Assembly: GCF_900112065.1 (NCBI RefSeq) | Contig: NZ_FOKE01000003.1 | Location: 446,957 to 510,956 of the forward strand | Length of the DNA stretch: 64,000 nt | Origin: Cohnella sp. OV330 | GTDB lineage: Bacteria > Bacillota > Bacilli > Paenibacillales > Paenibacillaceae | Direction: 5' to 3' | Part shown: positions 10,526-58,317 of the stretch, one piece after another | Layout of the letters: each line of letters opens with the position of its first letter | Numbering within the stretch: the first letter of the stretch is position 1 | Notes under the pieces: model-generated | Database searches by the model: none | Told to the model about the DNA's origin: nothing | What the model saw: only the letters and a program-made list of their open reading frames with translations | Made by a program: the position numbers and the translations under genes

Positions 10526-10654
10526 CGCGCTTCGTTCCCTTCTCGCCGTCGTCGTTTATGCCTTGAGTGTAAGAGATTTAAAAAAGATTGACTTCCCGAA
10601 TCCCGTTGAATAGGATCAGAAACATCGGGAGGATGCGAAACGGAGGAATCCGGC

Positions 10655-40506: not shown

Positions 40507-41589
40507 TTGAACGGTTTTAACGGACTGAACCTGGGCCTCGGCAATCTGGCGAGGCTGTCGGACGCGAAGTCGCGTTCGATAAGCGCCGAGAACTTTACCG
40601 GCGGCAAAGGCCAGGGGGCCATGGCGACCGAAGGGACGGGCGCGAACTGCGCGCGCGAGCTCGGCGTCGGCTGGAAGGTGTCTCCTTCCGTCGAGATCGG
40701 GCCGAACGCCACCTTCGTCATGGGCGAGATCGAAGGGCCGGGGGCCATCCAGCATATATGGATGACGGGCGCGCCGCATCATTGGCGCAACATGATTCTG
40801 CGCGTTTACTGGGACGACGAGGAAGAGCCTTCCGTCGAAGTGCCGATGTGCGACTTTTTCTGCAACGGATGGCAGGAGCGCGCGGACGTCAATTCGCTGC
40901 CGATCGCGGTCAATCCGGCGGGCGGCTTCAACAGCTACTGGCAGATGCCCTTCCGCCGATCCGCGCGCATCACGATGGAAAACCGAAATCCGGATAAGGC
41001 CGTGCTCTATTACCAGATCGACTACACGCTCACCGAGGTGTCGGAAGACGCGGCATACTTCCATGCGCAGTGGCGTCGCAGCAGCCCGGTCGCATACAAG
41101 GACGTGCATACGATCCTGGACGGGGTCCGCGGCAAAGGCCATTACGTCGGCGTCTACCTAGCCTGGCAGGTGAACAATACGGGTTGGTGGGGCGAAGGCG
41201 AGATCAAGTTTTATATGGACGGAGATAAGGAGCACCCGACGATCTGCGGCACGGGGACCGAGGATTACTTCGGCGGCGCCTGGAATTGGGAACAGCCGCA
41301 GGGCACGTATCGGACTTATTCGACCGCCTATCTGGGCATGCATCAGGCCATTAAGCCCGACGGTCTGTATCGCAGCCAACAGTGCTTCGGCATGTACCGC
41401 TGGCATGTGATGGATCCGATCCGCTTCGACAGCGATCTGCGGGTGACGATTCAAGATTTGGGCTGGCGTTCGGGCGGCCGTTACCTACCGCAGCAGAGCG
41501 ACATCGCGTCGACTGCGTTCTGGTACCAGTCCGAGCCGCACGCGCCGCATCCGCCGCTGCCGGATAACGACGCACGCGAGGTCATTTAG
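40507..41589 (+). CDS. GH172 (DUF2961) family glycoside hydrolase, copy 1 (360 aa)
   Basis: Member of the DUF2961 family, now GH172, whose characterised members include exo-alpha-D-arabinofuranosidases acting on mycobacterial D-arabinan and a difructose-dianhydride I enzyme. Diagnostic segments: GPGAIQHIWMT near residue 79, LRVYWDDEEEPSVEVPMCDFF, and the acidic motif GTGTEDYF at 248-255, ending with SDIASTAFWYQSEPH. No signal peptide, so cytoplasmic. TTG start with AAGGAG upstream. Shares a locus with araB, a second GH172 and a GH183-like lipoprotein, favouring an exo-arabinofuranosidase role over fructan chemistry. Activity not established. Confidence 0.88.
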   Translation: MNGFNGLNLGLGNLARLSDAKSRSISAENFTGGKGQGAMATEGTGANCARELGVGWKVSPSVEIGPNATFVMGEIEGPGAIQHIWMTGAPHHWRNMILRVYWDDEEEPSVEVPMCDFFCNGWQERADVNSLPIAVNPAGGFNSYWQMPFRRSARITMENRNPDKAVLYYQIDYTLTEVSEDAAYFHAQWRRSSPVAYKDVHTILDGVRGKGHYVGVYLAWQVNNTGWWGEGEIKFYMDGDKEHPTICGTGTEDYFGGAWNWEQPQGTYRTYSTAYLGMHQAIKPDGLYRSQQCFGMYRWHVMDPIRFDSDLRVTIQDLGWRSGGRYLPQQSDIASTAFWYQSEPHAPHPPLPDNDAREVI

Positions 41590-41728: not shown

Positions 41729-43399
41729 GTGAAAAAGCAGTATGCGCTCGGCATCGATTACGGCACGGCGTCAGGCCGCGCGCTGCTCGTCGACATCGGC
41801 AGCGGCGAAGAGCTCGCCACCCACGTGACGGAATATCCGCACGGGGTGATCGACCAGACGCTGCCGGGCTCCGGTTTGCGGCTGGAGCCGGATTGGGCGC
41901 TTCAGCATCCGGACGATTATATCGAAGTGCTGCGGCGATCGGTTCCCGCCGTGCTCCGCGCGGCGGGAGCGGATCCGGGTAGCGTCATCGGCGTCGGCAT
42001 CGACTTCACCGCATGCACGATGCTGCCGCTGGACGCCGACGGGACGCCGCTCTGCCTGAGGCCCGAATGGCGGGATCGGCCGCATAGCTGGACGAAGCTG
42101 TGGAAGCACCACGCGGCCCAGGACGAGGCGAACCGCATCAACGAGGCTGCGGCACGGCGCGGCGAAGCGTTCCTCGCCCGCTACGGCGGCAAGACGTCGT
42201 CCGAATGGATGCTGGCGAAGGCGTGGCAAATCCTGAACGAAGCGCCGGACGTGTACGAAGCCGCGGACCTGTTCATGGAGGCGGCGGACTGGGTCGTCAT
42301 GCGGATGACCGGCAGCCTCGTCCGCAACAGCTGCACCGCAGGCTACAAGGCGCTGTGGCACAAGGGCGACGGCTACCCGCCGGCGGACTTTCTCGCTGCG
42401 CTTGATCCGAGACTATCGGACTTCTACGAGACGAAGCTCCGAGGACCGATCGCGCCGCTCGGCGCCAGGGCAGGCGGGCTCTCGGGGGAAATGGCGGAGC
42501 TGACGGGCCTGCGGCCGGGCACGGCCGTCGCCGTAGGCAATATCGACGCGCACGCCATGGTGCCCGCCGTCGGCGTCGTGTCGCCGGGCAAGCTGGTGCT
42601 GGCGATGGGCACCTCGACTTGCCACCTGCTGCTGAGCGAGCGGGAGGCGCCGGCGGAAGGGATCTGCGGCGTCGTGGAGGACGGCATCGTGCCGGGTTAT
42701 TACGGCTACGAAGCGGGCCAATCCGCCGTCGGGGACATCTTCGCTTGGTACGTCGACGAAGCGGTGCCCGGCTACGCGCAGCTTGAGGCCGCGGAGGCAG
42801 GCGTCTCCGTCCACGAGCTGCTGGAAACCAAAGCGGCGGCGTACGAACCGGGCGAGACCGGCCTGCTCGCGCTCGATTGGTGGAACGGCAGCCGGTCGGT
42901 GCTGATGAATGCCGATCTTTCCGGCCTGATCGTCGGCCTGACGCTGCAGACCAAACCCGAGGAGATCTATCGCGCGTTGCTCGAGGCCACGGCCTTCGGC
43001 ACGCGCTGTATCATCGAGGCGCTGGCCGCGGGCGGCGTCGCCATCGACGAGCTCTACGCATGCGGCGGCCTGCCCCGGCGCAACCGGCTGCTCATGCAGA
43101 TCTACGCGGACGCGACGGGGCGCGAGATCCGCATCGCGGACTCGGCCGAGACGGCCGCGCTCGGCGCCGCGATGTTCGGCGCGGTGGCGGCGGGAGCCGA
43201 GCGCGGCGGATACGCGACGATCGCCGATGCCTCGCGGCGCATGGCCCGCGTCCGCGAGGAGACGTTCAAGCCGGATCGCGGTCGAGCGCTCGTCTACGAC
43301 CGGCTGTACGACGAGTATATCCGGCTGCACGATTGGTTCGGCCGCGAAGAAGACATGATGAAGCGGTTAAAAGCGCTCAAGCGGCGCAGTTCCTCGTAA
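41729..43399 (+). CDS. araB: Ribulokinase, AraB type, FGGY family (556 aa)
   Basis: ATP-dependent phosphorylation of ribulose to ribulose-5-phosphate. N-terminal phosphate-binding [15 protein letters not shown], AraB-specific [25 protein letters not shown] and [15 protein letters not shown], central GTSTCHLLL, and C-terminal [17 protein letters not shown]. Length matches B. subtilis AraB. GTG start after AAAGGAGAGG. Known AraB enzymes accept all four 2-ketopentoses, so it could serve D-ribulose from D-arabinose as well as L-ribulose. No isomerase (AraA, FucI) or epimerase (AraD) gene lies in the window, a notable gap. Confidence 0.93.
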
Positions 43400-43437: not shown

Positions 43438-43519
43438 AATCGCCGGATTACGCTCATGAACCGGTCCTGTTGCCCGCTTGCACGCATCCGCACTCCCAGA
43501 CACAAAGGAGAACGTTCCC

Positions 43520-44629
43520 ATGGAAATGCAGCAAAGCTTATCGACGCTCAGCCGGTCCAGAATCGGCAAAAGAAAACGCGAATCCAGCTACGATCGCACC
43601 GGAGGCAATAAAGATTATTTCTCGATCCGGCCGGGCGACAACGCGGAGATCTGCACCCTCCAGGGCGCGGGCGCCATCACGCACATCTGGATGACGATGG
43701 CGACCGACGCGCCTGCCGAGGAGGCTTATCTTCCCCGCAAAATCGTGCTGCGCATGTATTGGGACGGCGAAGCCGAGCCCAGCGTGGAGGTGCCGATCGG
43801 CGATTTCTTCGGGATGGGACACGGCATCACCAGAAACTATACGTCGGCGGCGCTCATGATGAGTCCGGAGGACGGCAAGGCGTTCAACTGCTTCTTCCGG
43901 ATGCCGTTCGCGAGCGGCGCCCGGATCGCGGTCGAGAGCGAGGCCGACCATCCGATCAAATTTTACTTCTACGTTGACTATGAGGCTTACGACAGCCTGC
44001 CGGCGGGAGAGCTCCGCTTCCATGCCCAGTGGCGGCGGGAATGCCCGACGGAAGGCATCTCGGAAAATGGCGCGGACAACGCCGAATTCGAATTCGGCGG
44101 CAAAAACACGACGGGCGACGGCAATTACGTCATTTTGGAGGCGGCGGGCAAGGGTCACTACATCGGATGCAACTTCAACGTGCACAATCTTCGCGAGACG
44201 CGGGAATGGAACTGGTACGGAGAAGGCGACGACATGATCTTCATCGACGGCGAGCCTTGGCCGCCTACGCTGCACGGCACGGGCATGGAGGATTACTTTA
44301 ATACCGCGTGGTGTCCGCAGCAAGAGGTGTGCACGCCCTATCACGGCATCATTCTCGGCGGCGGCCCCAATTGGAGCGGCAAAATTTCTACCTATCGCTA
44401 TCACGTCCTCGATCCGGTCATGTTCGATTCCAACATCCGCGTCACGATCGAGCATGGCCACAACAATCACCGCAGCGACGACGTCTCTTCCACCGCTTAC
44501 TGGTACCAGAGCGAGCCGCATCAAGCGTTTCCCGCGCTCCCCGGCGTCGCCGGCCGGCTGCCGCTGCCCGACATCAAGCCGTTCGATCCGGCCTCGCTGG
44601 GCCGCATCTTCGGCCATTCGAATCCGTAA
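43520..44629 (+). CDS. GH172 (DUF2961) family glycoside hydrolase, copy 2 (369 aa)
   Basis: Same family as the gene at 40507 but clearly diverged: starts with RESSYDRTGGNKDYFSI, GAGAITHIWMTM, LRMYWDGEAEPSVEVPIGDFFG, and carries GTGMEDYF at 253-260 where copy 1 has GTGTEDYF. Ends with VSSTAYWYQSEPH. No signal peptide. The ATG at 43520 follows AAAGGAG; a reading frame extends 14 codons upstream without a site. Two paralogues in one locus suggest different linkages or end groups of one polymer. Confidence 0.88.
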   Translation: MEMQQSLSTLSRSRIGKRKRESSYDRTGGNKDYFSIRPGDNAEICTLQGAGAITHIWMTMATDAPAEEAYLPRKIVLRMYWDGEAEPSVEVPIGDFFGMGHGITRNYTSAALMMSPEDGKAFNCFFRMPFASGARIAVESEADHPIKFYFYVDYEAYDSLPAGELRFHAQWRRECPTEGISENGADNAEFEFGGKNTTGDGNYVILEAAGKGHYIGCNFNVHNLRETREWNWYGEGDDMIFIDGEPWPPTLHGTGMEDYFNTAWCPQQEVCTPYHGIILGGGPNWSGKISTYRYHVLDPVMFDSNIRVTIEHGHNNHRSDDVSSTAYWYQSEPHQAFPALPGVAGRLPLPDIKPFDPASLGRIFGHSNP

Positions 44630-44657
44630 TGCCCATGTTGCGAAAGGAGGTGGGGGC

Positions 44658-45782
44658 TTGAAGCCCATCGCGAGCTCGGCTGCCTTGGCCGCCGTTCTTT
44701 TACTGGCGCTGACCGGCTGCGCGAGCGGCTCATCGGAAGATCCGATGCTGACGTCTGCGGGCAAAAGCTTTGTATTGCGCGGCATCTCGGGCGTGTTGCA
44801 AGTATCGCAGATCACGGGGGCGGATTCGCCGAACAAGACCGACCGCTATGCCGTCTACGGCACCGATCTGGGCTCTATGATGAACGACGGCGACCGGACG
44901 TACTTCGTCTTCGGCGACACGTTCGGGGAAAGGTCGGCGGACCAGATCGGCGGCGGCGGAAGCTTCTGGCGATCCAATACGCTCGGATTCACGAAAGACG
45001 ACGATCCGTCGGACGGCATCGCGCTGAACGGCATGATCGCGGAGGAGGACGGCACGGCCAAGGAGCTGCTCCCTTCCAGGAAAATCGACTACGACGAGAT
45101 GACGAAGATTCCGACGCACGGCGTGGCGGCGAACGGCGCGCTCTACCTGTACTACATGTCGGTGAGCCATTGGGGCGACCCGGGCCGGTGGGATGCGGGC
45201 TACGCGAGCTTGGCCAAGTCCGCGGACCAAGGACAGAACTGGACGCTGATGGACGGCGTGAGATGGCCGGGCGACAGCGGCTTTATCCAGGTGAGTCCTT
45301 ATAAGGTGAATTCGGACGGAGGCCAATCGGAAATCTACTTCTGGTGCATCCCGGCCGGACGGTTCGGCGGCGTGAAGCTGATGAAGGTCGCGGAGGCCGA
45401 CATCGAGCGGCAGTGGGCCTACAAGTATTACGCAGGCCTGGATGACATGCAAAAGCCCATCTGGAGCGAGGACATGGCGCAGGCCGCCACCGTCGTGGAC
45501 GATACGGCAGGAGAGCTGTCCGTCGTATGGAACGCCTATCTCGGACGGTGGATCATGACCTATCTGCAGGAAGGGCGCGGCGTCGTCATCCGCGAAGGCT
45601 TGGCGCCATGGGGACCATGGGGCGAAGCGATCGATCTCGTAACGAAAGAAGAGCAGCCCGGTTTGTACGGACCGTACATGAACGACCGCTACGCGGAAGG
45701 CGACGGAAAGACGATCTACTTCTCGCTGTCGCTTTGGGATCCGTACAACGTCTTTTGGTTCAAGGCGACGCTCGAAAAATGA
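44658..45782 (+). CDS. DUF4185/GH183-type lipoprotein, putative endo-D-arabinanase (374 aa)
   Basis: Signal peptide with lipobox LTGC (Cys21), so anchored outside the membrane. The rest follows the DUF4185 pattern: YAVYGTDLGSMM (Asp70), FVFGDTFGE (Asp87), FWRSNTLGFTKDDDPSDG, MTKIPTHGVAANG, LYYMSVSHWGDPGRWDAGYA, SADQGQNW. DUF4185 proteins were recently shown to include endo-alpha-D-arabinanases (GH183) acting on mycobacterial arabinogalactan and lipoarabinomannan. TTG start follows GAAAGGAGGTG; the open frame extends 68 codons upstream but those are out of phase with the preceding gene's protein. Only 28 bp after GH172-2. Function by family and context; not proven. Confidence 0.85.
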   Translation: MKPIASSAALAAVLLLALTGCASGSSEDPMLTSAGKSFVLRGISGVLQVSQITGADSPNKTDRYAVYGTDLGSMMNDGDRTYFVFGDTFGERSADQIGGGGSFWRSNTLGFTKDDDPSDGIALNGMIAEEDGTAKELLPSRKIDYDEMTKIPTHGVAANGALYLYYMSVSHWGDPGRWDAGYASLAKSADQGQNWTLMDGVRWPGDSGFIQVSPYKVNSDGGQSEIYFWCIPAGRFGGVKLMKVAEADIERQWAYKYYAGLDDMQKPIWSEDMAQAATVVDDTAGELSVVWNAYLGRWIMTYLQEGRGVVIREGLAPWGPWGEAIDLVTKEEQPGLYGPYMNDRYAEGDGKTIYFSLSLWDPYNVFWFKATLEK

Positions 45783-45821: not shown

Positions 45822-47270
45822 ATGCACGCTAAAAAGGGCAAAAAGCTCCAATCTCTGACGGCGATGTCTTCCGCGCTCCTGACTTTGTCGCTCGCGGTCA
45901 CGGCCTGCGGGGGCTCGAACGGCTCGGGCGAGGCCAGCCCGAGCGCATCGGCCAGTTCCAGCGCTGCCGCAAGTCCGAGCGCGTCCGCATCCGCATCTCC
46001 GTCGGCATCCGCGAGCGCCTCGGAGAGCGCCGCGCCCGCTGAGAAGGTCAAGATCGATTTCTGGACGCAGAAATTCGAGGATACGACCGACGCCTGGTTC
46101 AAGAAGTACGTCGACGCGTACAACAAGTCCCAGAGCAACGTCGAGATCAAGCTCACGATCGTGCCGGGCGACGCCTGGGACCAGAAGATGAAGGCCGCCC
46201 AAGCCGCTGGCAAGGCGCCGGAGATCCGCACGATCAGCTACGGCAACATCGCCAACGCCGCCAAGACGGGACAGATCCTGCCGCTCGACGATCTCATGGC
46301 CCCGGCCGTCTTCGACGACCTGTACGACAACGTCAAGGAATTCGTCAACGTCGGCGGCAAATATTATGCCTATCCGAAGCTCGTCGAGCCTTCGTCCGTC
46401 ATGTTCTACCGCAAGGATCTGTTCGAGGCGGCCGGCCTCGACCCGGAGAAGCCGCCGACGACCTGGGCGGAGCTGCTCGAAGACGCCAAGGCGCTGACGA
46501 AAAAGGGCGTGTTCGGACTCTCGATCGCGCAGAACGCGCCGGACCTGGGCTGGTCGAGCTGGGGGCTGCAGTACAACGCCGCGGGCCATCTTGCGCTGAC
46601 GGACGACTGGTCCAAGGCCGACATCAATAACGACGGTTACAAGGCCCTCTACAAGTTCTATCAGGACGCCTATCAATCCGGCGCCATGCCGAAGCAGCAG
46701 CTCGCGCCCTATGCGGACATCAAGGGCTTCGGCGAGGGCAAGGTCGCGATCCAGATTTGCGGCTCCTGGGCGATCGGCCAGCTTCGCAACTCTTACAAGA
46801 ACCTGATCGACAAAGTCGGCATCGCCCCGATGGCCTCCATCGACGGCGACCAGACGAAGCCGACGGCGACGCTCGGCGGCTGGACGCTCGCCGTCGACGG
46901 CAAGGCGGGCCACCCTCAGCAGGCTGCCGACTTCATCTCGTACCTGCTGGCCGGCGACCCGCAGATCATGATCGACTTCTTCAAGTCGGCGCAGTTCTCC
47001 AAGTTCTCGCCGCGCAAGTCCGTCGACGAGGCGATGAAGACCGATCCGGACGCCTCCAAGGATACGTGGCGCGCGCTGATCGCGGAGAAGATCATCCCGT
47101 ACGCGAAGGCGGAGCCGCTCTATCCGTGGGACGTCGCCCTGGCGGTGTCCACCGGGATCGAATCCGCGATGAAGGGGACCAGCGTCGACAAGGCGATCGC
47201 CAAGGCGGAGAAGGACGTCAACGACTTCATCGCGAAAAACAAGCTCGCCGGCACGAATCCGCGGGCATAA
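45822..47270 (+). CDS. Sugar ABC transporter substrate-binding lipoprotein (482 aa)
   Basis: Family 1 solute-binding protein; signal peptide with lipobox VTAC (Cys about 29), then a low-complexity Ser/Ala/Pro linker of about 45 residues before the binding fold (KIDFWTQKFEDTTDAWF, VMFYRKDLFEAAGLDPEKPPTTWAELLED, ATLGGWTLAVDGKAGHPQQAADFISYL). AGGGAGGA precedes the ATG. Placed directly after the GH183-like lipoprotein, so it should bind the oligosaccharides that enzyme releases. The long flexible linker may let it reach through the wall. Confidence 0.93.
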   Translation: MHAKKGKKLQSLTAMSSALLTLSLAVTACGGSNGSGEASPSASASSSAAASPSASASASPSASASASESAAPAEKVKIDFWTQKFEDTTDAWFKKYVDAYNKSQSNVEIKLTIVPGDAWDQKMKAAQAAGKAPEIRTISYGNIANAAKTGQILPLDDLMAPAVFDDLYDNVKEFVNVGGKYYAYPKLVEPSSVMFYRKDLFEAAGLDPEKPPTTWAELLEDAKALTKKGVFGLSIAQNAPDLGWSSWGLQYNAAGHLALTDDWSKADINNDGYKALYKFYQDAYQSGAMPKQQLAPYADIKGFGEGKVAIQICGSWAIGQLRNSYKNLIDKVGIAPMASIDGDQTKPTATLGGWTLAVDGKAGHPQQAADFISYLLAGDPQIMIDFFKSAQFSKFSPRKSVDEAMKTDPDASKDTWRALIAEKIIPYAKAEPLYPWDVALAVSTGIESAMKGTSVDKAIAKAEKDVNDFIAKNKLAGTNPRA

Positions 47271-47379: not shown

Positions 47380-48267
47380 ATGCGAAAGACCCCAACGAAG
47401 CGGGACAACGGCCCTGCCTATCTCCTGCTCGCGCCCATATTGATTTTGCTGACGATCTTCGTCGTCATTCCGTTTTTCTATGCGCTCGTCGTGAGCTTCT
47501 ACGACTGGAGCTTCTATCAGGAATCCGCGTTCGTCGGCGTACGCAACTATTACCTTGTCCTGACGGACGACTTGTTCCTCGAATCGGTCTGGACCGGCCT
47601 CAAGTTCGCGCTGATGGTCGTGCCCGCGATGCTGATCCTGGCCTTCCTGTTCGCGAACGTCGTCAAGAACCTGTCGCCCCGGTTCTCCGGCTTCGTCAAG
47701 ACGTCGATCTACATCCCGACCATCATCTCGGGGATCGTCGCCTCCGTCATCTTCGTCTTCATCTACGACTATACCGCCGGCTTGGCGAACTATATTCTCG
47801 GCTGGTTCGGCATGGAGCCGAAGGCCTGGCTGGCGGAGGTGGGCACCGCGCTGCCGAGCATCGCCGTGCCGGCCGTCTGGCTGGGCTTCGGACTCACCGC
47901 GCTCATCATGCTGTCCGGCCTGCACGACATTCCGGAGAGCTATTACGAGGCGGCGGCGCTCGAAGGGGCCGGCACTTGGGCCAAGATGCGCCATATCACG
48001 ATCCCGCTCATGCGCAACGTCATTCTTTATTTGCTCGTCACCGGCTTTACTGCGCAGATCTCGCAGTTCGAGCTGTCGCTCGTCATGACGAACGGAGGTC
48101 CGCTCAGCGAGACGGTGACGCCCAACCTGTACATCCTGAATCATTTCCGCAACGACGTGATGGTCGGCAATTCGATCGCCGCCTCGCTCCTGCTATTCGT
48201 GGTGCTGGGCAGCATCTCGGCTGTCATTTTCAGAGTGCTCAATTCGGAGAAAGCCGTCGACGGCTGA
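47380..48267 (+). CDS. Sugar ABC transporter permease, UgpA type (295 aa)
   Basis: CUT1 permease, six membrane segments, EAA loop DIPESYYEAAALEGAGTWAKM. Only a weak site (GGTGAT) precedes the ATG, and the strong hairpin lies just upstream, both consistent with lower expression than the binding protein. Partner of the binding protein at 45822 and the permease at 48300. Confidence 0.94.
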   Translation: MRKTPTKRDNGPAYLLLAPILILLTIFVVIPFFYALVVSFYDWSFYQESAFVGVRNYYLVLTDDLFLESVWTGLKFALMVVPAMLILAFLFANVVKNLSPRFSGFVKTSIYIPTIISGIVASVIFVFIYDYTAGLANYILGWFGMEPKAWLAEVGTALPSIAVPAVWLGFGLTALIMLSGLHDIPESYYEAAALEGAGTWAKMRHITIPLMRNVILYLLVTGFTAQISQFELSLVMTNGGPLSETVTPNLYILNHFRNDVMVGNSIAASLLLFVVLGSISAVIFRVLNSEKAVDG

Positions 48268-48299
48268 TCCGCGCTACCGCAGAAAGGAGGATGCCTAGC

Positions 48300-49124
48300 A
48301 TGCATACACTCACTCGCTTGCAAAAGTCGCTGATCGCGACAATCTCGGCGGTCGTGACGCTGGTCGCGCTTTTCCCGCTGCTATGGGTCGTCATCGCGGG
48401 CTTCAAGGAGCGGGCGGAGGTGCTGGCGACGCCGTTCCGCTTTTTCCCGAAGCGCTGGCTCGTGCAAAACTACACGGACATCCTCGGCGACGGGACGTTC
48501 CTGAAGTCGATGGCGGTCACGTTCGGCGGCGCCGTCCTGTTCGCCGTGCTCAGCCTCGCCGTCAACTCGGCGGCCGCTTATGTTTTCGCCAGGCTTGATT
48601 TCCGGTTCAAGCGGTTCCTCTGGGTGTACGTCATCACCACGATGTTCATTCCCGGCATGGCGATCCTGCTCACCTCCTTTATCGTCGTGAACAAGATGGG
48701 CATGCTCGATACGCTATGGGTGCTCGTGCTTCCCGGGGTCGCCTCGGCGGGCCATATGTTTTTTATCCGGCAGTTCTACTTGAACATTCCGCTCGCGCTG
48801 GAGGAGGCGGCCCTGATCGACGGGGCCGGACGGATCAAGATCTTCACGGCCGTCTTTCTGCCGATGTCGTTCCCCGTGTTCGTCATCGTCGGGATCGGGT
48901 CGTACCTGGGTTACTGGAATTCGTTCGTGTGGCCGACGATGACGATCACCAACCCGAACCTGTTCCAGATCATGCAGTACCTGTACACGTTCCGCTCCGA
49001 GCGGGCGACCGAGATGGGGATGCTCATGGCCGGTTCCGCCTTGTCCGCGCTGCCGACGATTATCCTGTTCCTGATCTTCCAGAAGCACATCATCTCGGGC
49101 ATCAAGATATCCGGGTTGAAATAA
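48300..49124 (+). CDS. Sugar ABC transporter permease, UgpE type (274 aa)
   Basis: Second CUT1 permease with EAA loop NIPLALEEAALIDGAGRIKIF and C-terminal LFLIFQKHIISGI. AAAGGAGG lies 9 bp before the ATG at 48300; another ATG at 48291 abuts the site and is unlikely. The frame is open far upstream through the previous gene, but that part is a shadow. No ATPase gene in the operon. Confidence 0.94.
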   Translation: MHTLTRLQKSLIATISAVVTLVALFPLLWVVIAGFKERAEVLATPFRFFPKRWLVQNYTDILGDGTFLKSMAVTFGGAVLFAVLSLAVNSAAAYVFARLDFRFKRFLWVYVITTMFIPGMAILLTSFIVVNKMGMLDTLWVLVLPGVASAGHMFFIRQFYLNIPLALEEAALIDGAGRIKIFTAVFLPMSFPVFVIVGIGSYLGYWNSFVWPTMTITNPNLFQIMQYLYTFRSERATEMGMLMAGSALSALPTIILFLIFQKHIISGIKISGLK

Positions 49125-49148
49125 GCGGGCGCGCGGAGGCGGCTATCG

Positions 49149-51440
49149 ATGATCGTACTGGAAAATGAACGGCTGCGTCTGGAATTGGGGGAGCGCGACG
49201 GCGCGATTCGGGGTCTTCGGGACCTGAGGCGCGGCATCGATTATACGGCGGGAACGAGCGCCGCGCCTGTCGTCGCGTTCCGGGTGGAGACGGACGACGG
49301 CTTCGAAGAAGACTTCGAATCGTTCGAATGGTCGTGGACCGGCGAGACGGAAGGGAATGAGGCCGGGGAAACGCAGGGACAGGCGGGGAAAGAGCGCGGC
49401 GTCGCGCTCGTCTGGCGGACGTCCGGCGGCGTCACGGTGCGCGCGGAGGTCTCGCTGGAGGCGGAAGCGGAGACGCTCCGTTTTCGCTGCTCGGCGGACA
49501 ACGCGTCGCAGGGGCGCCTGCACAGCCTGGAATATCCGGTGTTTCCGGATCTCGTCTCGCTGACGGCGGGCGGAGAGCAGGACTATATCGCGCATCCGTT
49601 CGCGACCGGCGTCCTCGTGCGCAATCCGATGAAGCATTTCTCGGCGAACGGCGCCGGTCTCCGGTACATGCCGTATCCCGAGAGTTTTTCCGGCGCATCG
49701 ATGCAGTTTTTCGCCTATTACGGCGCGGGCAGGGGCGGATTGTACTTTGCGGCGCCAGACGGGAACGGGCATCCCAAGTGGCTGAATTTCTACAAAAACG
49801 GCGGCGGTCTGCTGGAAGCGTCCTTCATCCACGGATGCGAGGATATCGGCGCGGGCAAGGGTATCGCGCCGCCGTACGAAGTGCAGGCCGCCCTCTTGGA
49901 CGGAGAGGGCTGGCACGAAGCGGCGGAGCGCTACAGGCAGTGGGCAGAGCGGCAGTTCTGGTGCGCGAAGGGCAAGCTCGCGGACCGCGCGGACGAGGAC
50001 GGCGCCTGGCTGTTCAGGGACATGGGCGCGGCTACGTTCGGCATCAACGCGGGTGCGGATCGGACGGCTTGGCTGCATGCTTACCACGCGCGCATCGGCA
50101 CGCCGATGTTCCACGTGCTCGGACCGGACTGGACGAACGCGCCCCAGACGTTCGGCAGCGGCGTGCCGGGGGGCATGGCCGATTGGTTCCCGACCCGCTT
50201 CAATCGCGCCAATCTGGACGTCATGAAACAATACGGAGACAAGTACGCGCCCTTCGAGTTCGACTATCTGTACCATTTCGGAGGCGCCGACGGCGAGTTG
50301 GGCCGCGCGGCCGCGCAGGTTTTTCCCGACAACAAGAAGAGCATCGATGCGTACCGTTTTCCTTTTCTGTGCCCCGCCCATCCGTACGCGCACGATTTTC
50401 ACGTGCGGCGGGACGCGGAGCTCGCGCGGACGACCGACGTCGACGCGATCTATTACGATATCTCGGCGAACAACATTCTCAAGGTTTGCATGGACGAAAC
50501 CCATGGTCATCCGGTCGGCGCAGGGCGCGCGATCGAGGAGGCTTATCGCCGCAACTACGCGGACACGAAGGCCGCCATGGACAGCATCGCAGGCCGGTAC
50601 GTCCCGATGGGCACGGAAATGATGAACGAGACGATGCTCGGACGCATCGACTTCTACCAGGCGCGCGCGGGCGGCCAGCCGGCCGCGCCGCTGGAGATCT
50701 ATCCGATGCGCGACCTGCTCAAGAGCGGGGACGCGGAGCTGATCCCCCTGTTTGCCTACGTGTACCACGACTACGGCATCTTGCGCCTTGACGGCTGGGG
50801 CAAGCTCGCGCGGGAGATCGGCGATCTGTTCTATTTTACGGTCGCTCGCACGTATCTATGGGGCGGCCTGTACGAGCTCAACTACGAGTACAGCCCGATG
50901 GAGTCGCTGGACGGCGCGGAGAACGCGCCGGAGGAGCACTATTATACGTTCGAGCCGAGGGGCTATGCCTTCGATGAATCGCGGGCGGATTACGTCGGCG
51001 TCTATGCGCGGCTTCGCGTCGGCGCGGCGAACAAGTACTGGGCGTTCGGTCGGATGCTGCGCCCGCTCGAATTCAAGCCGCCCCGCGTCGCGCTGGACTG
51101 GTTTCACTATAACCACGGCACGGAGTCGCCGGAATACAACGACGCGGGCACGCTGACGGTGGACGCCGTCGTTCATTCGGTCTGGCGGTATAAGGAGGAG
51201 AGCGTCGGGCTGTTCTTCGCCAACGCGAGCGGCGATCCGCAGCGAGTGAGCGCTGGGATCGATCCCGCCGACTATGGGATGTCGCGTATCGAGGCGTCCT
51301 TGCACGGAGCGGAGACCGCGGACGTCCCGCTGCTCGAGCGCGAGCCTGACGGCAGCTTGGCATTCGGGATTCCGGCGCGGGCGCTTCTCCTGATCGAGCT
51401 GTCCGGCCCGATTCATCGCGAAGAAGGCGTGGTACGATGA
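49149..51440 (+). CDS. Large DUF6259-like putative glycoside hydrolase (763 aa)
   Basis: Probably of the DUF6259 group, an uncharacterised family. An N-terminal beta-sandwich of about 250 residues (IVLENERLRLELGERDGAIR, as in GH36/GH101-like enzymes) is followed by a likely TIM barrel: FHVLGPDWTNAP, then AIYYDISANN, where the Asp after two Tyr is placed like a barrel nucleophile, and VPMGTEMMNE with candidate acid/base Glu residues. A C-terminal beta domain ends at GIPARALLLIELSGP. No signal peptide. It starts 24 bp after the permease gene, inside the arabinan-type operon, so it probably attacks an imported oligosaccharide. Family name and mechanism are inference. Confidence 0.7.
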   Translation: MIVLENERLRLELGERDGAIRGLRDLRRGIDYTAGTSAAPVVAFRVETDDGFEEDFESFEWSWTGETEGNEAGETQGQAGKERGVALVWRTSGGVTVRAEVSLEAEAETLRFRCSADNASQGRLHSLEYPVFPDLVSLTAGGEQDYIAHPFATGVLVRNPMKHFSANGAGLRYMPYPESFSGASMQFFAYYGAGRGGLYFAAPDGNGHPKWLNFYKNGGGLLEASFIHGCEDIGAGKGIAPPYEVQAALLDGEGWHEAAERYRQWAERQFWCAKGKLADRADEDGAWLFRDMGAATFGINAGADRTAWLHAYHARIGTPMFHVLGPDWTNAPQTFGSGVPGGMADWFPTRFNRANLDVMKQYGDKYAPFEFDYLYHFGGADGELGRAAAQVFPDNKKSIDAYRFPFLCPAHPYAHDFHVRRDAELARTTDVDAIYYDISANNILKVCMDETHGHPVGAGRAIEEAYRRNYADTKAAMDSIAGRYVPMGTEMMNETMLGRIDFYQARAGGQPAAPLEIYPMRDLLKSGDAELIPLFAYVYHDYGILRLDGWGKLAREIGDLFYFTVARTYLWGGLYELNYEYSPMESLDGAENAPEEHYYTFEPRGYAFDESRADYVGVYARLRVGAANKYWAFGRMLRPLEFKPPRVALDWFHYNHGTESPEYNDAGTLTVDAVVHSVWRYKEESVGLFFANASGDPQRVSAGIDPADYGMSRIEASLHGAETADVPLLEREPDGSLAFGIPARALLLIELSGPIHREEGVVR

Positions 51441-51531
51441 AGGCATTGGTCGGCATAAGGACGTGCCGGGCCGTCGTTTAATCTCGGCTAGCTATATAGT
51501 TGCGCTAAGGCGCAGACAGGAGGCCTGCCGT

Positions 51532-53574
51532 TTGAAGCAGACCGAATTCACTCATTTGTTCGATGGCAGGTTCGTCCGGCAGGTTCTCTGCGATTCGCTC
51601 GGAGCGGCGTCGCCCGAGGTGACTGTCGATTCGCATGAAGGGGAAGCGCTGCATTGCACGATGACCTTCACGCTCGGCGCGCCGACCCTGCAGGACGACT
51701 GGCGCCTGCGCCTCGAGCCGGCGTTCGAGCCGGATTTTCGCTGGGCGCCGCATCTGACGCCGACGGACCGGCATGTCATCGACCAGCATTGCTTCCGTTC
51801 GCCCGCGCTCATCGTCGGGAATCGGCAGCGAACGTTGATCCTGATCCCGGATCTCGATCTGCTCGCAGCGGATGCGCCGGTCAGCTGGTACATGGACCTC
51901 GACGCGCCGCGCAATTCGCTGACGCTCGGCATGAGCCGCAGCCGGCCGGAGGAGCATGTGCTGTTCGTCCGGGAGCCGGGAGCCGCTTATCCCGCGGGGA
52001 CGGTGCGGATCGGCTTTTACCTCATGGCGTTCGAGGATGAGGCGGTCGCGGCGGACCCTTGGCGTCCCGCGCTCGCTTTCCTGTGGCGGCGCTGGGGCGC
52101 GGCCCGCATGCGCGCGGGCGCGCCGGAGACGGCGCCGCTGCAGCGATACGTCGAGCGGACGTACGCCTGGGCGTTCGATTACTGGGCGGACGCCGTCTGG
52201 CAGCAGTTCGAGCTGAACGGCCGGGAGGTGGGCGCGTGCGCGTTCATCGTCGACGCGAGCCAGAGCCCGAACTTCCCCGGGCAGGCCAACGAGCGGGAGC
52301 CTCGCTCGATCTGGAACCAGGCCTGGTTCAGCTCGCTGCGGTCCGCGCAGGGCATGTACCGCCACGCCCGCCGGACCGGGGACGAAGATCTGCTCCGCCG
52401 CGCCCGCCTCGCCAAGGAGCTCGCGCTCTCCGCGCCGCGGCGGGACGGCCTTTTCCCGTCGGTCGTCGCGACGGAGATGGAGCGCGTCATGGCATCGGAC
52501 GGGACCGAGGTGAACCGCTCGCAGAGCTGGGAGGAGGCGTTCTGGGGCAACTCGAACCGCAACCCGCAGCATCCTTGGACGCTAGGCGGCACGATCCGGG
52601 AGGCGCCCTATCATATCCTCGACATGAGCTGGACCGCCTTCCTCATGCTGCGATGGTACCGGGAGCTGGAGCCCGACGAACGGCTGCTCGAATACGCCCG
52701 ATCTTACGCAGAGGCGCTGCTCGCGCTGCAGGATGCCGAAGGATACTTTCCGGCCTGGCTGGACCAAGCGACCCTTCGGCCGCTCCCGGAGCTGGCGCAG
52801 TCCCCGGAAGCGTCGATGTCCGTTACGTTCCTGCTGGCGCTGGAGGAGATCTTGCCCGATGCCGGATACAAGGAAGCCGCGCTGCGGGCGATGGACGCCG
52901 TGCTCGCTGACATCGTGCCGGAGGGCCGGTGGGAGGACTTCGAGACGTACTGGTCCTGCTGTCCGTACGGCGCGGATTCGCTGCAGGGACGGCGGGTGAC
53001 GCGCAACGGCATGTTCAAGCAGTGCAACCTGTCCATGTTCTGGACGGCGGAGGCGCTGCTCGCGAGCTGGCAGGCGACCGGCGAGCGGCGCTATCTCGCG
53101 GGCGGCGAGCGCTGCCTCGACGAGCTGCTGATGACGCAGGCGTCCTGGCAGCCGCCCTATATCTACGTCGAGGCGCTCGGCGGCTTCGGCGTCATGAACG
53201 CGGACGGCGAATGGAACGACGCGCGCCAGAGCCTGTTCGCCGAGCTGATCCTCCGGTACGGCATGGAGCTGGACCGGATCGAATACGTCGAGCGTGGCGT
53301 CGCGGCCCTGCGGGCGTCCTTCGTCATGATGTATGCGCCGGAGAACGCGAGGACGAAGGCGCAGTGGGAGCGGGCCTTTCCTTTTTTCGGAGAGGAAGAC
53401 TTCGGCTTCATGATGGAGAATTACGGGCACGGCGGGCAGACGGGGCCGGACGGCCTGGGGATGGGCGGCTTCACGATCTTCGATTGGGGCAACGGCGCCG
53501 CGGCCGAAGCGTACCTGCGCATCCGGGACAGGTTGGGAGACGAGCTCGAGCGGCGTTACGGGCTCTGCTTTTAA
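51532..53574 (+). CDS. Putative (alpha/alpha)6-barrel glycosidase-like protein of unknown family (680 aa)
   Basis: An N-terminal beta-rich part (about 1-190) precedes a helical part with repeated helix pairs typical of six-hairpin glycosidases: WNQAWFSSLRSAQGMYRHAR, YHILDMSWTAFLMLRWYREL, YAEALLALQDAEGYFPAWLD, CNLSMFWTAEALLASWQATG, and MMENYGHGGQTGPDGLG. Candidate catalytic acids cannot be assigned. TTG start at 51532 with AGGAGG 8 bp upstream is preferred to the GTG at 51463, which has none. No signal peptide. The gene sits between the DUF6259-like gene and the LacI regulator. Known D-arabinan enzymes include GH116, also an (alpha/alpha)6 fold, but I see no clear GH116 motif here. Confidence 0.65.
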   Translation: MKQTEFTHLFDGRFVRQVLCDSLGAASPEVTVDSHEGEALHCTMTFTLGAPTLQDDWRLRLEPAFEPDFRWAPHLTPTDRHVIDQHCFRSPALIVGNRQRTLILIPDLDLLAADAPVSWYMDLDAPRNSLTLGMSRSRPEEHVLFVREPGAAYPAGTVRIGFYLMAFEDEAVAADPWRPALAFLWRRWGAARMRAGAPETAPLQRYVERTYAWAFDYWADAVWQQFELNGREVGACAFIVDASQSPNFPGQANEREPRSIWNQAWFSSLRSAQGMYRHARRTGDEDLLRRARLAKELALSAPRRDGLFPSVVATEMERVMASDGTEVNRSQSWEEAFWGNSNRNPQHPWTLGGTIREAPYHILDMSWTAFLMLRWYRELEPDERLLEYARSYAEALLALQDAEGYFPAWLDQATLRPLPELAQSPEASMSVTFLLALEEILPDAGYKEAALRAMDAVLADIVPEGRWEDFETYWSCCPYGADSLQGRRVTRNGMFKQCNLSMFWTAEALLASWQATGERRYLAGGERCLDELLMTQASWQPPYIYVEALGGFGVMNADGEWNDARQSLFAELILRYGMELDRIEYVERGVAALRASFVMMYAPENARTKAQWERAFPFFGEEDFGFMMENYGHGGQTGPDGLGMGGFTIFDWGNGAAAEAYLRIRDRLGDELERRYGLCF

Positions 53575-53613: not shown

Positions 53614-54636
53614 GTGGATAAGCATACGATCTATCATATCGCCGATCGGGTCGGCATGTCGCCTTCCACGGTATCGCGCGCCCTGTCCGGCCGAGGCTAC
53701 TGCGGTCCGAAGACGAAGGAGAAGATTCTGGCGGTCGCCAAGGAGCTCGATTATGCCCCGGACAATGCGGCCAAGATGCTCAAGACGGGCCGGACCAACA
53801 AGATCATTTTCGCCGTTCCCGACATCTGCAACCCCTTTTACTTCGACATGATCAACGGCATCAACCAGGTGCTGGAGGCGCACGGTTACCTGATGATCCT
53901 TTTTTACACGAAGCACAGCCTGCAGGACGAGCTCAAGGCGATCCAGAATTTGCGCGAAAAGGTCGCCGACGGCATGATCATGGTATCCTTCAACTTCTGC
54001 GACGACAATATCGGCGCGATCAACGCGACGAACGCGCCCGTCGTGCTCACCAACGCGTACCGTTCTCCGCAGGGCGCCGACCGCTTCGACTTCGTGTACG
54101 TCGACACGTACGAAGGCATCCGGCTGGCGACCGCGCATCTGCTGGACCAAGGCATCGAGCGGATCGCTTATCTGGGCGGAAGCTTGAGCGAACAGACCGG
54201 CTATCAGCGCTTCTGCGGCTATCGCGAAGCGATGCGGGAGGCGGGCGTGCCCCTCGAAGACGCGTTCATCGCGGAGTCGGACTACACGGAGAAAGGCGGG
54301 TACCGGACCGCGCGCGCCTGGTTCCAGGGACCGGATCGGCCGCAGGGCATCGTGGCCGCCAACGACCTCATGGCGATCGGCGTCATGAAGGCGTGCGAGG
54401 AGGCCGGCTTGCGCATTCCCGCGGACGTGACCGTCGTCGGGATGGACAATCTCGACATCGCCTCCAGGGTCTACCCCAAGCTGACGTCCGTGGCGATGCG
54501 GCAGGAGGAGATCGGGAGGCAGACCGCCGAGGTGCTGATGGGGCGCCTGCAAGGGGACCGGTCGCGCCAGCAGGGCGTGCGACTCGCTCCTGCGCTCGTC
54601 GTGCGGGAGTCGAGCCGGCGGGCGGCGGCGGAATAA
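53614..54636 (+). CDS. LacI-family transcriptional regulator (340 aa)
   Basis: LacI HTH at the N-terminus (TIYHIADRVGMSPSTVSRALSGRG, then LKTGRTNKI) and PBP-like effector domain (IFAVPDICNPFYFDMINGI, IVAANDLMAIGVMKACEEAGL, TVVGMDNLDIASRVYPKLTSV). GTG start with GGAGGAACACG upstream. Last gene of the 40.5-54.6 kb operon. The CG-centred palindromes before araB and both GH172 genes (core TGCAAnCGnTTGCA) are its likely operators. Confidence 0.94.
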   Translation: MDKHTIYHIADRVGMSPSTVSRALSGRGYCGPKTKEKILAVAKELDYAPDNAAKMLKTGRTNKIIFAVPDICNPFYFDMINGINQVLEAHGYLMILFYTKHSLQDELKAIQNLREKVADGMIMVSFNFCDDNIGAINATNAPVVLTNAYRSPQGADRFDFVYVDTYEGIRLATAHLLDQGIERIAYLGGSLSEQTGYQRFCGYREAMREAGVPLEDAFIAESDYTEKGGYRTARAWFQGPDRPQGIVAANDLMAIGVMKACEEAGLRIPADVTVVGMDNLDIASRVYPKLTSVAMRQEEIGRQTAEVLMGRLQGDRSRQQGVRLAPALVVRESSRRAAAE

Positions 54637-56874: not shown

Positions 56875-56901
56875 CCTGAACAATTAGGGGTGAAAAGTAA
56901 C

Positions 56902-58317
56902 ATGGCGGAAACGGCGCTTGCGTCCAAACTGCGTGCCATTGTCGGCGAACGTTACTATAGAGAGGATATGGAGGCCCGCGTCGCGCATTCCTACGACGGG
57001 ACGCCGATGCTGCAGGCGCTCCCCGACGGCGTCGTCTACCCGGCTTCGACCGCCGATGTATCGGCTGTCATGAAGGTTCTTGCCGAGCACCGCGTGCCGC
57101 TGGTCAGCAGGGGCTCCGGATCGAACCTGTGCGGGGGCACCGTTCCGCTCGAAGGCGGCATCGTCATGGTCATGCACCGCATGAACCGCATTCTCGAGGT
57201 CGACCTCGAAAATCTGACGGCTATCGTGCAGCCGGGCCTTATTACGGCCGAGTTCATCGCGCATATCGAGTCGCTCGGGCTGTTCTATCCGCCCGATCCG
57301 AGCAGCATGCGCATCTCGACGATCGGCGGCAACATCGCGGAGTGCTCAGGCGGCCTGCGAGGCCTCAAGTACGGCACGACCAAGGACTACGTCATCGGTC
57401 TCGAAGCCGTGCTCGCGAGCGGCGAGATCATCCGCACGGGCGGCAAGCTGATGAAGGACGTGGCCGGCTACGACCTGACCAAGCTGCTGGTCGGCTCGGA
57501 GGGCACGCTCGCCATCATCACCGAAGCGACGCTGAAGCTCGTGCCGCCGCCGCGCGCCAAGAAGACGATGCTCGCCATGTACCGCGACCTGTATGGCGCG
57601 GCGCGCACCGTGTCGCGCATCATCGAGGCGCGGATCATTCCGGCGACGCTCGAGTTCATGGACAATCCGACGATCCGCGTCGTCGACGACTTCGCGAAGC
57701 TCGGGCTGCCGCTCGACATGGAGGCGATCCTCCTCATCGAGCAGGACGGCGATCCCGAAGCGGTGGAGCGTGATATCGCCCTGATCGAAGAGATCTGCAT
57801 CGCGGAGCGCGCGGACCGCGTACAGGTCGCGGCGGACCGCGAGGAGGCGGAGCGTCTGCTGACCGCCCGGCGGAGCGCGTTCACCGCGCTCGCGCGGCTG
57901 CGTCCGACGACGATCCTCGAGGACGCGACCGTGCCGCGTTCGAAGATCGCGGACATGGTGCTGCGCATCAACGAGATCGCGCGCAAGTACAACGTCACGA
58001 TCGCGACGTTCGGCCACGCCGGCGACGGCAATCTGCACCCGACGGCGACGACGGACGCGCGCGACCACGACGAGGTGCACCGCGTCGAGCAGGCGTTCGC
58101 CGAAATTTTCGAGGCGTCCATCGCGCTCGGCGGCACGATCACGGGCGAGCACGGCGTGGGCATCGTCAAGGCGCCTTATCTCGAGTGGAAGGTCGGATCC
58201 GCGGGCCTCGACATGATGAAGGGCATCAAGCAGGCGTTCGATCCGCACAGGCTGCTTAACCCGGGCAAGCTGTTCGCCAAGGAGACGAGAAAAAGGGTGG
58301 TGCTGCAGCATGAGTAG
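56902..58317 (+). CDS. glcD: Glycolate oxidase FAD-linked subunit GlcD (471 aa)
   Basis: FAD-binding type 4 domain (PLVSRGSGSNLCGGTVP, MRISTIGGNIAECSGGLRGLKYG, GSEGTLAIITEATLKL) and C-terminal oxidase domain with TFGHAGDGNLHPT and GTITGEHGVG. Oxidises glycolate (or D-lactate in relatives) to the keto acid, passing electrons to GlcF. Closest named homologue in B. subtilis is YsfC. ATG at 56902 follows AGGGGTG; the frame is open a few codons earlier from a GTG inside that site. Overlaps glcF by 8 bp. No GlcE-type subunit gene is present. Confidence 0.93.
   Translation: MAETALASKLRAIVGERYYREDMEARVAHSYDGTPMLQALPDGVVYPASTADVSAVMKVLAEHRVPLVSRGSGSNLCGGTVPLEGGIVMVMHRMNRILEVDLENLTAIVQPGLITAEFIAHIESLGLFYPPDPSSMRISTIGGNIAECSGGLRGLKYGTTKDYVIGLEAVLASGEIIRTGGKLMKDVAGYDLTKLLVGSEGTLAIITEATLKLVPPPRAKKTMLAMYRDLYGAARTVSRIIEARIIPATLEFMDNPTIRVVDDFAKLGLPLDMEAILLIEQDGDPEAVERDIALIEEICIAERADRVQVAADREEAERLLTARRSAFTALARLRPTTILEDATVPRSKIADMVLRINEIARKYNVTIATFGHAGDGNLHPTATTDARDHDEVHRVEQAFAEIFEASIALGGTITGEHGVGIVKAPYLEWKVGSAGLDMMKGIKQAFDPHRLLNPGKLFAKETRKRVVLQHE

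What the first reader, a model, noticed from the sequence alone, without database searches (positions are those of the whole stretch)
49149..51440. Uncharacterised large enzyme (DUF6259-like) embedded in the arabinan-type operon
A 763-aa protein with N-terminal beta-sandwich, a likely TIM barrel with IYYDISANN and a later GTEMMNE segment, and a C-terminal beta domain. This is the build of retaining glycosidases of the GH36/GH101/GH129 sort, but I know of no assigned activity. Its position 24 bp behind the permease predicts an imported oligosaccharide substrate. Possible new GH family.
Basis: inference. Interest (0 to 1): 0.7.

Follow-up and report, generated by a model that had tools for sequence, protein, structure and literature searches.

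The report
Unassigned glycosidase for D-arabinan breakdown
A soil-type bacterium carries a so far unassigned sugar-cutting enzyme that travels with the known enzymes that dismantle D-arabinan, the unusual sugar polymer of mycobacterial cell walls, and it probably performs one of the steps inside the cell.

Summary
Window 49149-51440 (+) encodes an intact 763-aa protein, 24 bp after a permease gene, matching Pfam DUF6259. Its operon is very probably for D-arabinan: a GH172 neighbour best matches ExoMA1, the lipoprotein GH183 best matches EndoMA1, and 19 of 35 related loci carry D-arabinose-type catabolic genes. Of 35 relatives, 33 have GH172 or GH183 in the locus, against 0 of 9 distant DUF6259 loci. 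In 197 genomes of the family, all 18 with the gene have full-length GH183; one further genome has GH183 without it. AlphaFold gives a GH129/GH36/GH101-like fold (GH129 Z about 18.5) without sequence membership of those families. D437 is conserved in all DUF6259 proteins examined and pairs with the GH101 nucleophile in a weak profile match; the acid/base is E490 or E494. Best reading: a cytoplasmic retaining glycosidase for imported D-arabinan oligosaccharides, perhaps the exo-beta-D-arabinofuranosidase that GH116 supplies elsewhere. That step is uncertain: four loci also carry an ExoMA2-like GH116, and a second unassigned enzyme (51463-53574) is an equally good candidate. No paper in the library searched names DUF6259.

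The parts
49149..51440 (+). DUF6259-clade glycosidase, 763 aa, no signal peptide seen by eye, presumed cytoplasmic
   Evidence: ORF; Pfam DUF6259; 35 relatives; AlphaFold model
49135..49139 (+). GGAGG ribosome-binding-site-like sequence 9 nt before the ATG
49149..49898 (+). N-terminal beta-sandwich (about residues 1-250), mutarotase-like supersandwich
   Evidence: DSSP; galactose mutarotase alignments Z 15.2 over residues 1-252
50001..51083 (+). TIM-barrel catalytic domain (about residues 285-645)
   Evidence: boundaries approximate
50457..50459 (+). D437 in IYYDISANN, predicted catalytic nucleophile at the end of barrel strand 4
   Evidence: invariant; D in 27 of 27 rows; paired with the GH101 Asp in a weak mixed-profile match
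50616..50618 (+). E490 in GTEMMNE, favoured acid/base after barrel strand 5
   Evidence: invariant; position after the strand at residue 487; by eye like GH101 VVTNE
50628..50630 (+). E494 in GTEMMNE, alternative acid/base; sequence alignments pair it with the Glu of MIENCG in distant DUF6259
51084..51410 (+). C-terminal beta domain (about residues 646-754)
   Evidence: DSSP
40507..41589 (+). GH172 (DUF2961) a, ExoMA1-like exo-alpha-D-arabinofuranosidase
   Evidence: Pfam; 8ic8 E 3.6e-139
41729..43399 (+). FGGY kinase, ribulokinase (AraB type)
   Evidence: Pfam; NCBIfam ribulokinase above cut-off
43478..44629 (+). GH172 (DUF2961) b, nearest to 4kq7 and D. gadei 8ah3
   Evidence: Pfam
44637..45782 (+). 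DUF4185/GH183 with lipoprotein-type signal (LTGC), EndoMA1-like endo-D-arabinanase; the longest ORF's start at 44454 is probably too early
45822..47270 (+). ABC solute-binding protein (UgpB-like)
47380..48267 (+). ABC permease 1
   Evidence: 295-aa hydrophobic frame; a 294-aa frame of similar start recurs in 24 loci as cluster 3 (not aligned to it)
48291..49124 (+). ABC permease 2 (UgpE-like)
51463..53574 (+). GH88L: second unassigned enzyme, (alpha/alpha)6-type barrel with N-terminal beta-sandwich
   Evidence: Pfam GH88 below cut-off; model and fold
53614..54636 (+). LacI-family regulator

Best explanation
The protein is a cytoplasmic, retaining (double-displacement) exo-glycosidase of the GH36/GH101/GH129 structural group that works on D-arabinan oligosaccharides. 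The extracellular GH183 lipoprotein cuts D-arabinan, the ABC transporter encoded just upstream imports the oligosaccharides, and this enzyme together with two GH172 enzymes reduces them to D-arabinose. D437 is the nucleophile and E490 (or E494) the acid/base. The bond I think most likely is the terminal beta-D-Araf-(1->2) linkage, a 1,2-cis bond, which in Microbacterium is cut by GH116 ExoMA2. Shown here: operon content, co-occurrence, predicted fold, conservation. Inferred: cytoplasmic location, mechanism, catalytic pair, linkage. My confidence is about 0.88 that it is a glycosidase of D-arabinan breakdown, about 0.85 for D437, about 0.4 for the beta-D-Araf linkage.
For: Fold: GH129 NagBb Foldseek E 5.9e-19, Z 18.5 over 537 residues at 3.9 A. 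Nucleophile: D in 27 of 27 DUF6259 rows; mixed DUF6259 profile vs three GH101-type proteins prob 69, E 4.4e-5, pairing D437 with their Asp. Operon: GH172a to ExoMA1 E 3.6e-139, GH183 to EndoMA1 E 1.1e-47. Synteny: GH172 in 32, GH183 in 29, either in 33 of 35 loci; binding protein and permease each in 32; control 0 of 9 distant DUF6259 loci, which had shorter flanks. Permease directly upstream in 27 of 35. Co-occurrence: all 18 gene-positive genomes of 197 have full-length GH183, 19 genomes having it in all (Fisher p 1.4e-24 ignoring relatedness). FucI, ribulokinase or arabinose-5-phosphate isomerase in 19 of 35 loci. 4 of 18 gene-positive genomes have no GH116, and genome G595 (L018) has no GH88L homologue and no GH116 within the fetched locus. 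Families of this structural group cut 1,2-cis bonds (recalled), as beta-D-Araf is.
Against: Four loci (L004, L005, L009, L017) carry both this gene and an ExoMA2-like GH116, and the own genome has an ExoMA2-like GH116 on another contig, so it is no simple replacement. GH88L (51463-53574) is nearly as widespread: all four genomes without GH116 have a GH88L homologue, and genome G413 has GH183, GH172 and GH88L without this gene or GH116. The window's kinase model is named L-ribulokinase; its use for D-ribulose is recalled. I recall no furanoside-active member of this fold group. The profile of the P0001 clade alone did not match GH101. The model is weak near the active site (439-443 and 502-515 under pLDDT 50).
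Confidence: 0.4

Rival explanations
1. GH88L (or GH116 where present) cuts the beta-D-Araf cap, and the DUF6259 enzyme removes a different bond of imported D-arabinan oligosaccharides: a branch point, the arabinan-galactan junction or a non-arabinose cap.
For: GH88L homologues occur in 18 of 19 GH183 genomes, the exception G542 having a GH116 in its cluster, and in 14 of 16 genomes of loci that lacked it within the flanks (partly the same species). G413 has GH88L but neither the DUF6259-clade gene nor GH116. GH116 and DUF6259 coexist in four loci.
Against: GH88L is within the fetched flanks in only 14 of 35 loci. Its fold is a broadly shared (alpha/alpha)6 barrel: Foldseek best E 3.9e-6 to a lyase, second aligner best Z 22.5 to GH76 alpha-mannanase over the barrel only. 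In four genomes only a 42-45% homologue exists, and G595 (L018) has none. I know of no second obligatory D-arabinan linkage that GH172 leaves uncut.
Confidence: 0.35
2. It is an alpha-galactosaminidase or alpha-N-acetylgalactosaminidase that trims amino-sugar substituents from arabinan, like its nearest structural neighbours.
For: Nearest folds are GH129 alpha-N-acetylgalactosaminidase and the A-antigen galactosaminidase of Flavonifractor. Galactosamine on arabinan of some mycobacteria is recalled; one search was seen as a listing only.
Against: No amino-sugar catabolic gene among the ten recurrent gene clusters scanned or the window neighbours; the recurrent SIS protein is KpsF/KdsD-like. Other recurrent clusters were not scanned. 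A rare decoration would hardly explain 18 of 18 co-occurrence with GH183.
Confidence: 0.08
3. The operon targets another furanoside (fructofuranoside or plant L-arabinan) and the enzyme serves that.
For: GH172 also contains difructose dianhydride enzymes; GH172b matches 7v1v at E 2.3e-70. The kinase matches the L-ribulokinase model.
Against: GH172a matches ExoMA1 by 311 bits more than 7v1v; GH183, FucI, the KpsF/KdsD-like isomerase and ExoMA2-like GH116 point to D-arabinose.
Confidence: 0.05
4. Same fold and pathway, but the protein acts mainly as a transglycosidase or has lost hydrolysis.
For: Many retaining glycosidases can transglycosylate (recalled).
Against: D437, E490 and E494 are invariant in 29 of 29 aligned members; no synthase gene was named among the Pfam-scanned neighbours.
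Confidence: 0.05

Closest known systems
GH129 (NagBb 5wzn-5wzr; ZgGH129 3,6-anhydro-D-galactosidase 5opq, 8rzk)
   Same: Full-length fold: Foldseek best E 5.9e-19, TM to NagBb chains 0.64-0.68; Z 17.9-18.7 at 3.9-4.9 A
   Different: 12-14% identity; no GH129 Pfam match; operon shows no galactosamine or carrageenan context
GH101 (EngBF 2zxq; S. pneumoniae GH101 5a55-5a59)
   Same: Same barrel type (Foldseek E 8e-17); Asp of FIYVD pairs with D437 in a mixed profile
   Different: No GH101 Pfam match; Asp-to-Glu spacing 53 (to E490) against 29 in L062 and 32 in 5a58/5a59 titles; whole-model TM only 0.32-0.35 to the query
GH36 alpha-galactosidases and Flavonifractor galactosaminidase (8x1b, 9awt; placed near GH36 from recall)
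   Same: Same domain order; Z 16.8-17.4 for the galactosaminidase, 14.7-15.3 for GH36
   Different: 8-11% identity; no GH36 Pfam match
Distant DUF6259 proteins (Pfam PF19773)
   Same: Same Pfam domain; barrel profiles match at prob 95.6, E 1.2e-8; conserved Asp in 19 of 19 and an H-x-H in most
   Different: 0 of 9 sampled loci have GH172 or GH183; MIENCG-type motif instead of GTEMMNE; no described member found
GH116 ExoMA2 exo-beta-D-arabinofuranosidase (8ic6)
   Same: Possible functional counterpart: intracellular exo-enzyme in a D-arabinan cluster (PMC10509167, discussion section read)
   Different: (alpha/alpha)6 barrel (passage), unrelated fold; coexists with this gene in four loci

Membership tests
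Pfam DUF6259 (PF19773) | Profile match above the curated cut-off (28.7 bits) | tested here: met
   67.6 bits for P0001; all 29 aligned members match at E<=10, best E 3.3e-26
GH129 | Sequence match to Glyco_hydro_129 | tested here: not met
   None for P0001 at E<=1 nor for any of 29 members at E<=10 (HMMER filters drop most weak matches)
GH129 | Domain order and fold | tested here: met
   Z 18.5, 537 residues, 3.9 A to 5wzq
GH129 | Asp nucleophile and Glu acid/base at equivalent positions | tested here: inconclusive
   D437 conserved and at a strand end; no residue-level superposition available
GH101 | Sequence match to Glyco_hydro_101 | tested here: not met
   clade-only hhalign prob 0.1
GH101 | Nucleophile Asp on strand 4 | tested here: inconclusive
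   Mixed DUF6259 profile prob 69, E 4.4e-5 pairs D437 with the GH101 Asp; distant-only prob 18.8; clade-only failed
GH36 | Sequence match to a GH36 Pfam family | tested here: not met
GH116 exo-beta-D-arabinofuranosidase | GH116 profile and (alpha/alpha)6 barrel | tested here: not met
   No GH116 Pfam match; predicted TIM barrel
D-arabinan utilisation system | GH183 + GH172 + transporter + D-arabinose catabolism genes together | tested here: met
   in the window itself the isomerase is missing, a FucI gene lies on another contig
CAZy GH family | A biochemically characterised founding member | not testable with these tools
   CAZy is not held here; no paper naming DUF6259 or PF19773 in the PMC library

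The most novel reading that the evidence does not exclude
A new glycoside hydrolase family: the first furanoside-cleaving branch of the GH36/GH101/GH129 fold group, an exo-beta-D-arabinofuranosidase that Bacillota use in D-arabinan degradation beside or instead of GH116.
Probability: 0.35. Interest if true: 0.68.

Novelty: new variant of a known kind. Interest (0 to 1): 0.55.

Why it matters
D-arabinan is a hallmark polymer of mycobacterial and corynebacterial walls; GH183 endo-enzymes and partner exo-enzymes were reported in 2023 (PMC10115798, PMC10509167). A further enzyme of this pathway in a different fold would widen the toolkit for dissecting arabinogalactan and lipoarabinomannan and show a Bacillota route for feeding on actinobacterial walls. 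It would also give DUF6259, unnamed in the papers searched, a first activity. The prediction is directly testable with synthetic substrates.

Tried and rejected
GH129 family search in 299 Bacillota genomes found none, but no control genome rang either, so it does not show absence. Sequence searches of the PDB with P0001, the alignment and one distant DUF6259 protein gave nothing useful. Profile comparison of the clade alone with three GH101-type proteins failed (barrel-only again); the distant-only profile gave prob 18.8, E 0.0013, and only the mixed one prob 69. For the distant-only profile two rows (L044, L053) were dropped beforehand. Plasmid search: no match. Promoter and terminator scans were near the shuffled expectation. 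GH116 as a strict alternative to the gene was rejected because four loci have both; the picture is further clouded by GH88L, so the linkage stays at 0.4. The amino-sugar hypothesis was lowered for want of amino-sugar genes in the clusters scanned. Reading the permease as one 605-aa protein was rejected: two permease frames overlap there. Among the 50 rows shown by each structure search of P0001, I saw no enzyme named as furanoside-active, which proves nothing. Of the nine control loci, seven have a weakly similar ABC permease (25-33% identity), so nearness to sugar transporters is not special to this clade; nearness to GH172/GH183 is.

Full report
What is there. Window 49149-51440 (+) holds an intact ORF of 763 aa with an ATG, a GGAGG nine bases upstream and a 24-base gap after the stop of the second ABC permease. 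It matches Pfam DUF6259 at residues 241-544, E 1.3e-18. It has no NCBIfam match and no sequence relative in the PDB; the single hit at E 0.81 is an OTU-domain protein and reads as chance. When 29 clade members were scanned one by one, the only other recurrent Pfam match was the GH38 C-terminal beta-domain model in 15 of them, best E 7.6e-6. The protein begins with a beta strand and shows no signal peptide by eye, so it is presumed cytoplasmic.

The operon is for D-arabinan. Pfam names two DUF2961 (GH172) genes, an FGGY kinase, a DUF4185 (GH183) gene, a solute-binding protein and a permease beside it. GH172a matches ExoMA1, an exo-alpha-D-arabinofuranosidase, at E 3.6e-139, 311 bits better than difructose dianhydride synthase. 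GH172b is nearer to 4kq7 and the D. gadei entry 8ah3. The DUF4185 protein matches the endo-alpha-D-arabinanase 8hhv at E 1.1e-47 (I take it to be EndoMA1) and begins with a lipoprotein-type signal ending in LTGC, so it should act outside. The kinase passes the NCBIfam ribulokinase cut-offs; one of these models is named L-ribulokinase, and that such kinases also take D-ribulose is recalled. In relatives, an L-fucose isomerase gene (which also isomerises D-arabinose, recalled; it was the top carbohydrate enzyme of D. gadei on D-arabinan, PMC10115798 section read) is present in 12 loci, all 12 also with the ribulokinase (13 loci). A KpsF/KdsD-like arabinose-5-phosphate isomerase is present in 6 Bacillaceae loci, and a ribokinase in 4. 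At least one of FucI, ribulokinase or that isomerase is in 19 of 35 loci. The window has no FucI gene in the operon; a FucI match lies on another contig of the genome. Two different routes for D-arabinose beside the same hydrolases make D-arabinose the likely product. The layout mirrors the published Microbacterium system: secreted GH183, an ABC transporter, intracellular GH172 and GH116, an isomerase and a kinase (PMC10509167, discussion section read; passages of both papers).

The gene is bound to that system. Among 35 relatives from one scan of named genomes, GH172 lies within the fetched flanks in 32, GH183 in 29, one or the other in 33, and the binding protein and the permease in 32 each. 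The two loci with neither are L023, a second copy in Paenibacillus arenilitoris, and L036, a 5.5-kb fragment. The permease is directly upstream in 27 of 35, by estimated gaps of -29 to +51 bases. As a control, none of 9 loci of distant DUF6259 proteins carries GH172 or GH183, though their stretches are 12-14 kb against mostly 22 kb. In 197 genomes of the same taxonomic family, 18 have the gene and 19 have a full-length DUF4185 (E below 1e-50; nine more have only short matches); the 18 are all among the 19. Fisher's p of 1.4e-24 ignores relatedness and overstates the case.

Fold and active site. AlphaFold (29-sequence alignment A1) gives pTM 0.85 and mean pLDDT 81.7, with stretches under 50 at 67-79, 397-400, 439-443, 502-515 and the C-terminus. 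Foldseek ranks GH129 NagBb first (E 5.9e-19, TM to target 0.64-0.68), then ZgGH129, GH101 and GH36 within about three orders of magnitude in E but with lower TM to the query (0.32-0.43 for GH101 and GH36). The second aligner gives Z 18.7 for ZgGH129 (557 residues, 4.9 A) and 18.5 for NagBb (537 residues, 3.9 A) over the whole model. Alpha-amylase barrels score 14-16, so the lead of GH129 in Z is modest, but only GH129 entries span the whole model at 3.9-4.9 A. D437, E490 and E494 are invariant in the clade. D437 ends strand 434-437, and E490 follows a short strand at 487. The equivalent Asp is present in 27 of 27 rows when 19 distant DUF6259 proteins are added, 18 of which also have a Glu aligned near GTEMMNE, the exception being L053. 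A profile of clade plus distant proteins matches three GH101-type proteins at prob 69, E 4.4e-5, pairing D437 with their conserved Asp in FIYVD; the distant proteins alone give prob 18.8 and the clade alone nothing. The 29-residue spacing between the conserved Asp and Glu of L062 is close to the 32 between D764 and E796, the mutated residues in the titles of 5a58 and 5a59, whose roles as nucleophile and acid/base I recall. Which Glu is the acid/base here is unsettled: the strand position favours E490, while the sequence alignments pair E494 with the Glu of MIENCG in distant members.

Which bond? The published exo-enzymes leave one necessary activity besides exo-alpha (GH172): exo-beta-D-arabinofuranosidase, which is GH116 ExoMA2 in Microbacterium (PMC10509167). 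An ExoMA2-like GH116 lies in only 4 of 35 loci; the one in L004 scores 712 bits to 8ic6 against 98 to the next family member, and the other three are 71-80% identical to it. Four of the 18 gene-positive genomes (G407, G467, G495, G583) have no GH116. A 1,2-cis beta-D-Araf bond suits the stereochemistry of this fold group, as I recall it. That makes the DUF6259 enzyme a candidate. Against this, it coexists with GH116 in four loci, the window's own genome has an ExoMA2-like GH116 on another contig (401 bits), and a second unassigned gene of the operon, GH88L (51463-53574), is an equal candidate. GH88L homologues are in 18 of 19 GH183 genomes, 14 of them at 58% identity or more and four at 42-45% only; all four genomes without GH116 have one. 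They are also in 14 of 16 genomes of loci that lacked it within the flanks; the two without are those of L017, which has GH116 in the locus, and L018, which does not. G413 has GH183, GH172a, GH88L, ribokinase and the arabinose-5-phosphate isomerase on a 35.9-kb contig, but in its whole genome no DUF6259-clade gene and no GH116. GH88L's model is an (alpha/alpha)6 barrel behind a beta-sandwich without a clear family; the best barrel match is GH76 alpha-mannanase, Z 22.5. So the linkage assignment stays near 0.4.

Novelty. No paper in the held PMC library names DUF6259 or PF19773, and searches for GH183, D-arabinofuranosidase and D-arabinan in Paenibacillus listed no report of this gene (listings and abstract beginnings only). 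It is best described as a functionally unassigned branch of a known fold group, attached to a known pathway: a probable new GH family, but not a new kind of system.

Noticed in passing
window 51463-53574 (+): GH88L: a second unassigned enzyme with an (alpha/alpha)6-type barrel, found in 18 of 19 GH183 genomes of the family sample, with WEDFETYWSC and QCN invariant in 14 aligned members. It deserves its own study.
   Followed up: partly
L066 (G413:C55:14000-33900): A D-arabinan-type cluster with GH172, GH183, GH88L, ribokinase and arabinose-5-phosphate isomerase but no DUF6259-clade gene or GH116 in the genome.
   Followed up: partly
L024, L027, L028, L029, L033, L035: Bacillaceae loci carry a KpsF/KdsD-like arabinose-5-phosphate isomerase, in L029 and L033 with a ribokinase, suggesting that D-arabinose is used by 5-phosphorylation rather than by FucI and ribulokinase.
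   Followed up: partly
window 56890-59707 and 60241-61080 (+): glcD-like and glcF-like genes and a DeoC/LacD-type aldolase lie downstream; they might handle two-carbon products of pentose cleavage, but no evidence ties them to the operon.
   Followed up: no
window 51437-51481 (+): An ATG overlapping the DUF6259 stop opens a 14-codon frame beginning MKALV, like the start of the zinc alcohol dehydrogenase seen in 15 of 35 related loci; a relic or chance.
   Followed up: no
L032 (Cohnella rhizosphaerae) 10001-12288: The DUF6259 gene appears split: the tblastn match spans residues 1-752, but the open frame called starts near residue 82, suggesting a frameshift or a sequencing error.
   Followed up: no
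L053 6163-9429 (-), G000:C22: A second DUF6259 protein in the same genome, 1089 aa with a signal-like N-terminus; in the alignment it keeps the Asp but not the Glu.
   Followed up: partly
L064 664-2706 (+), G000:C11: A 680-aa GH101-type protein in the same genome (E 2.6e-17), far smaller than the solved GH101 enzymes.
   Followed up: no
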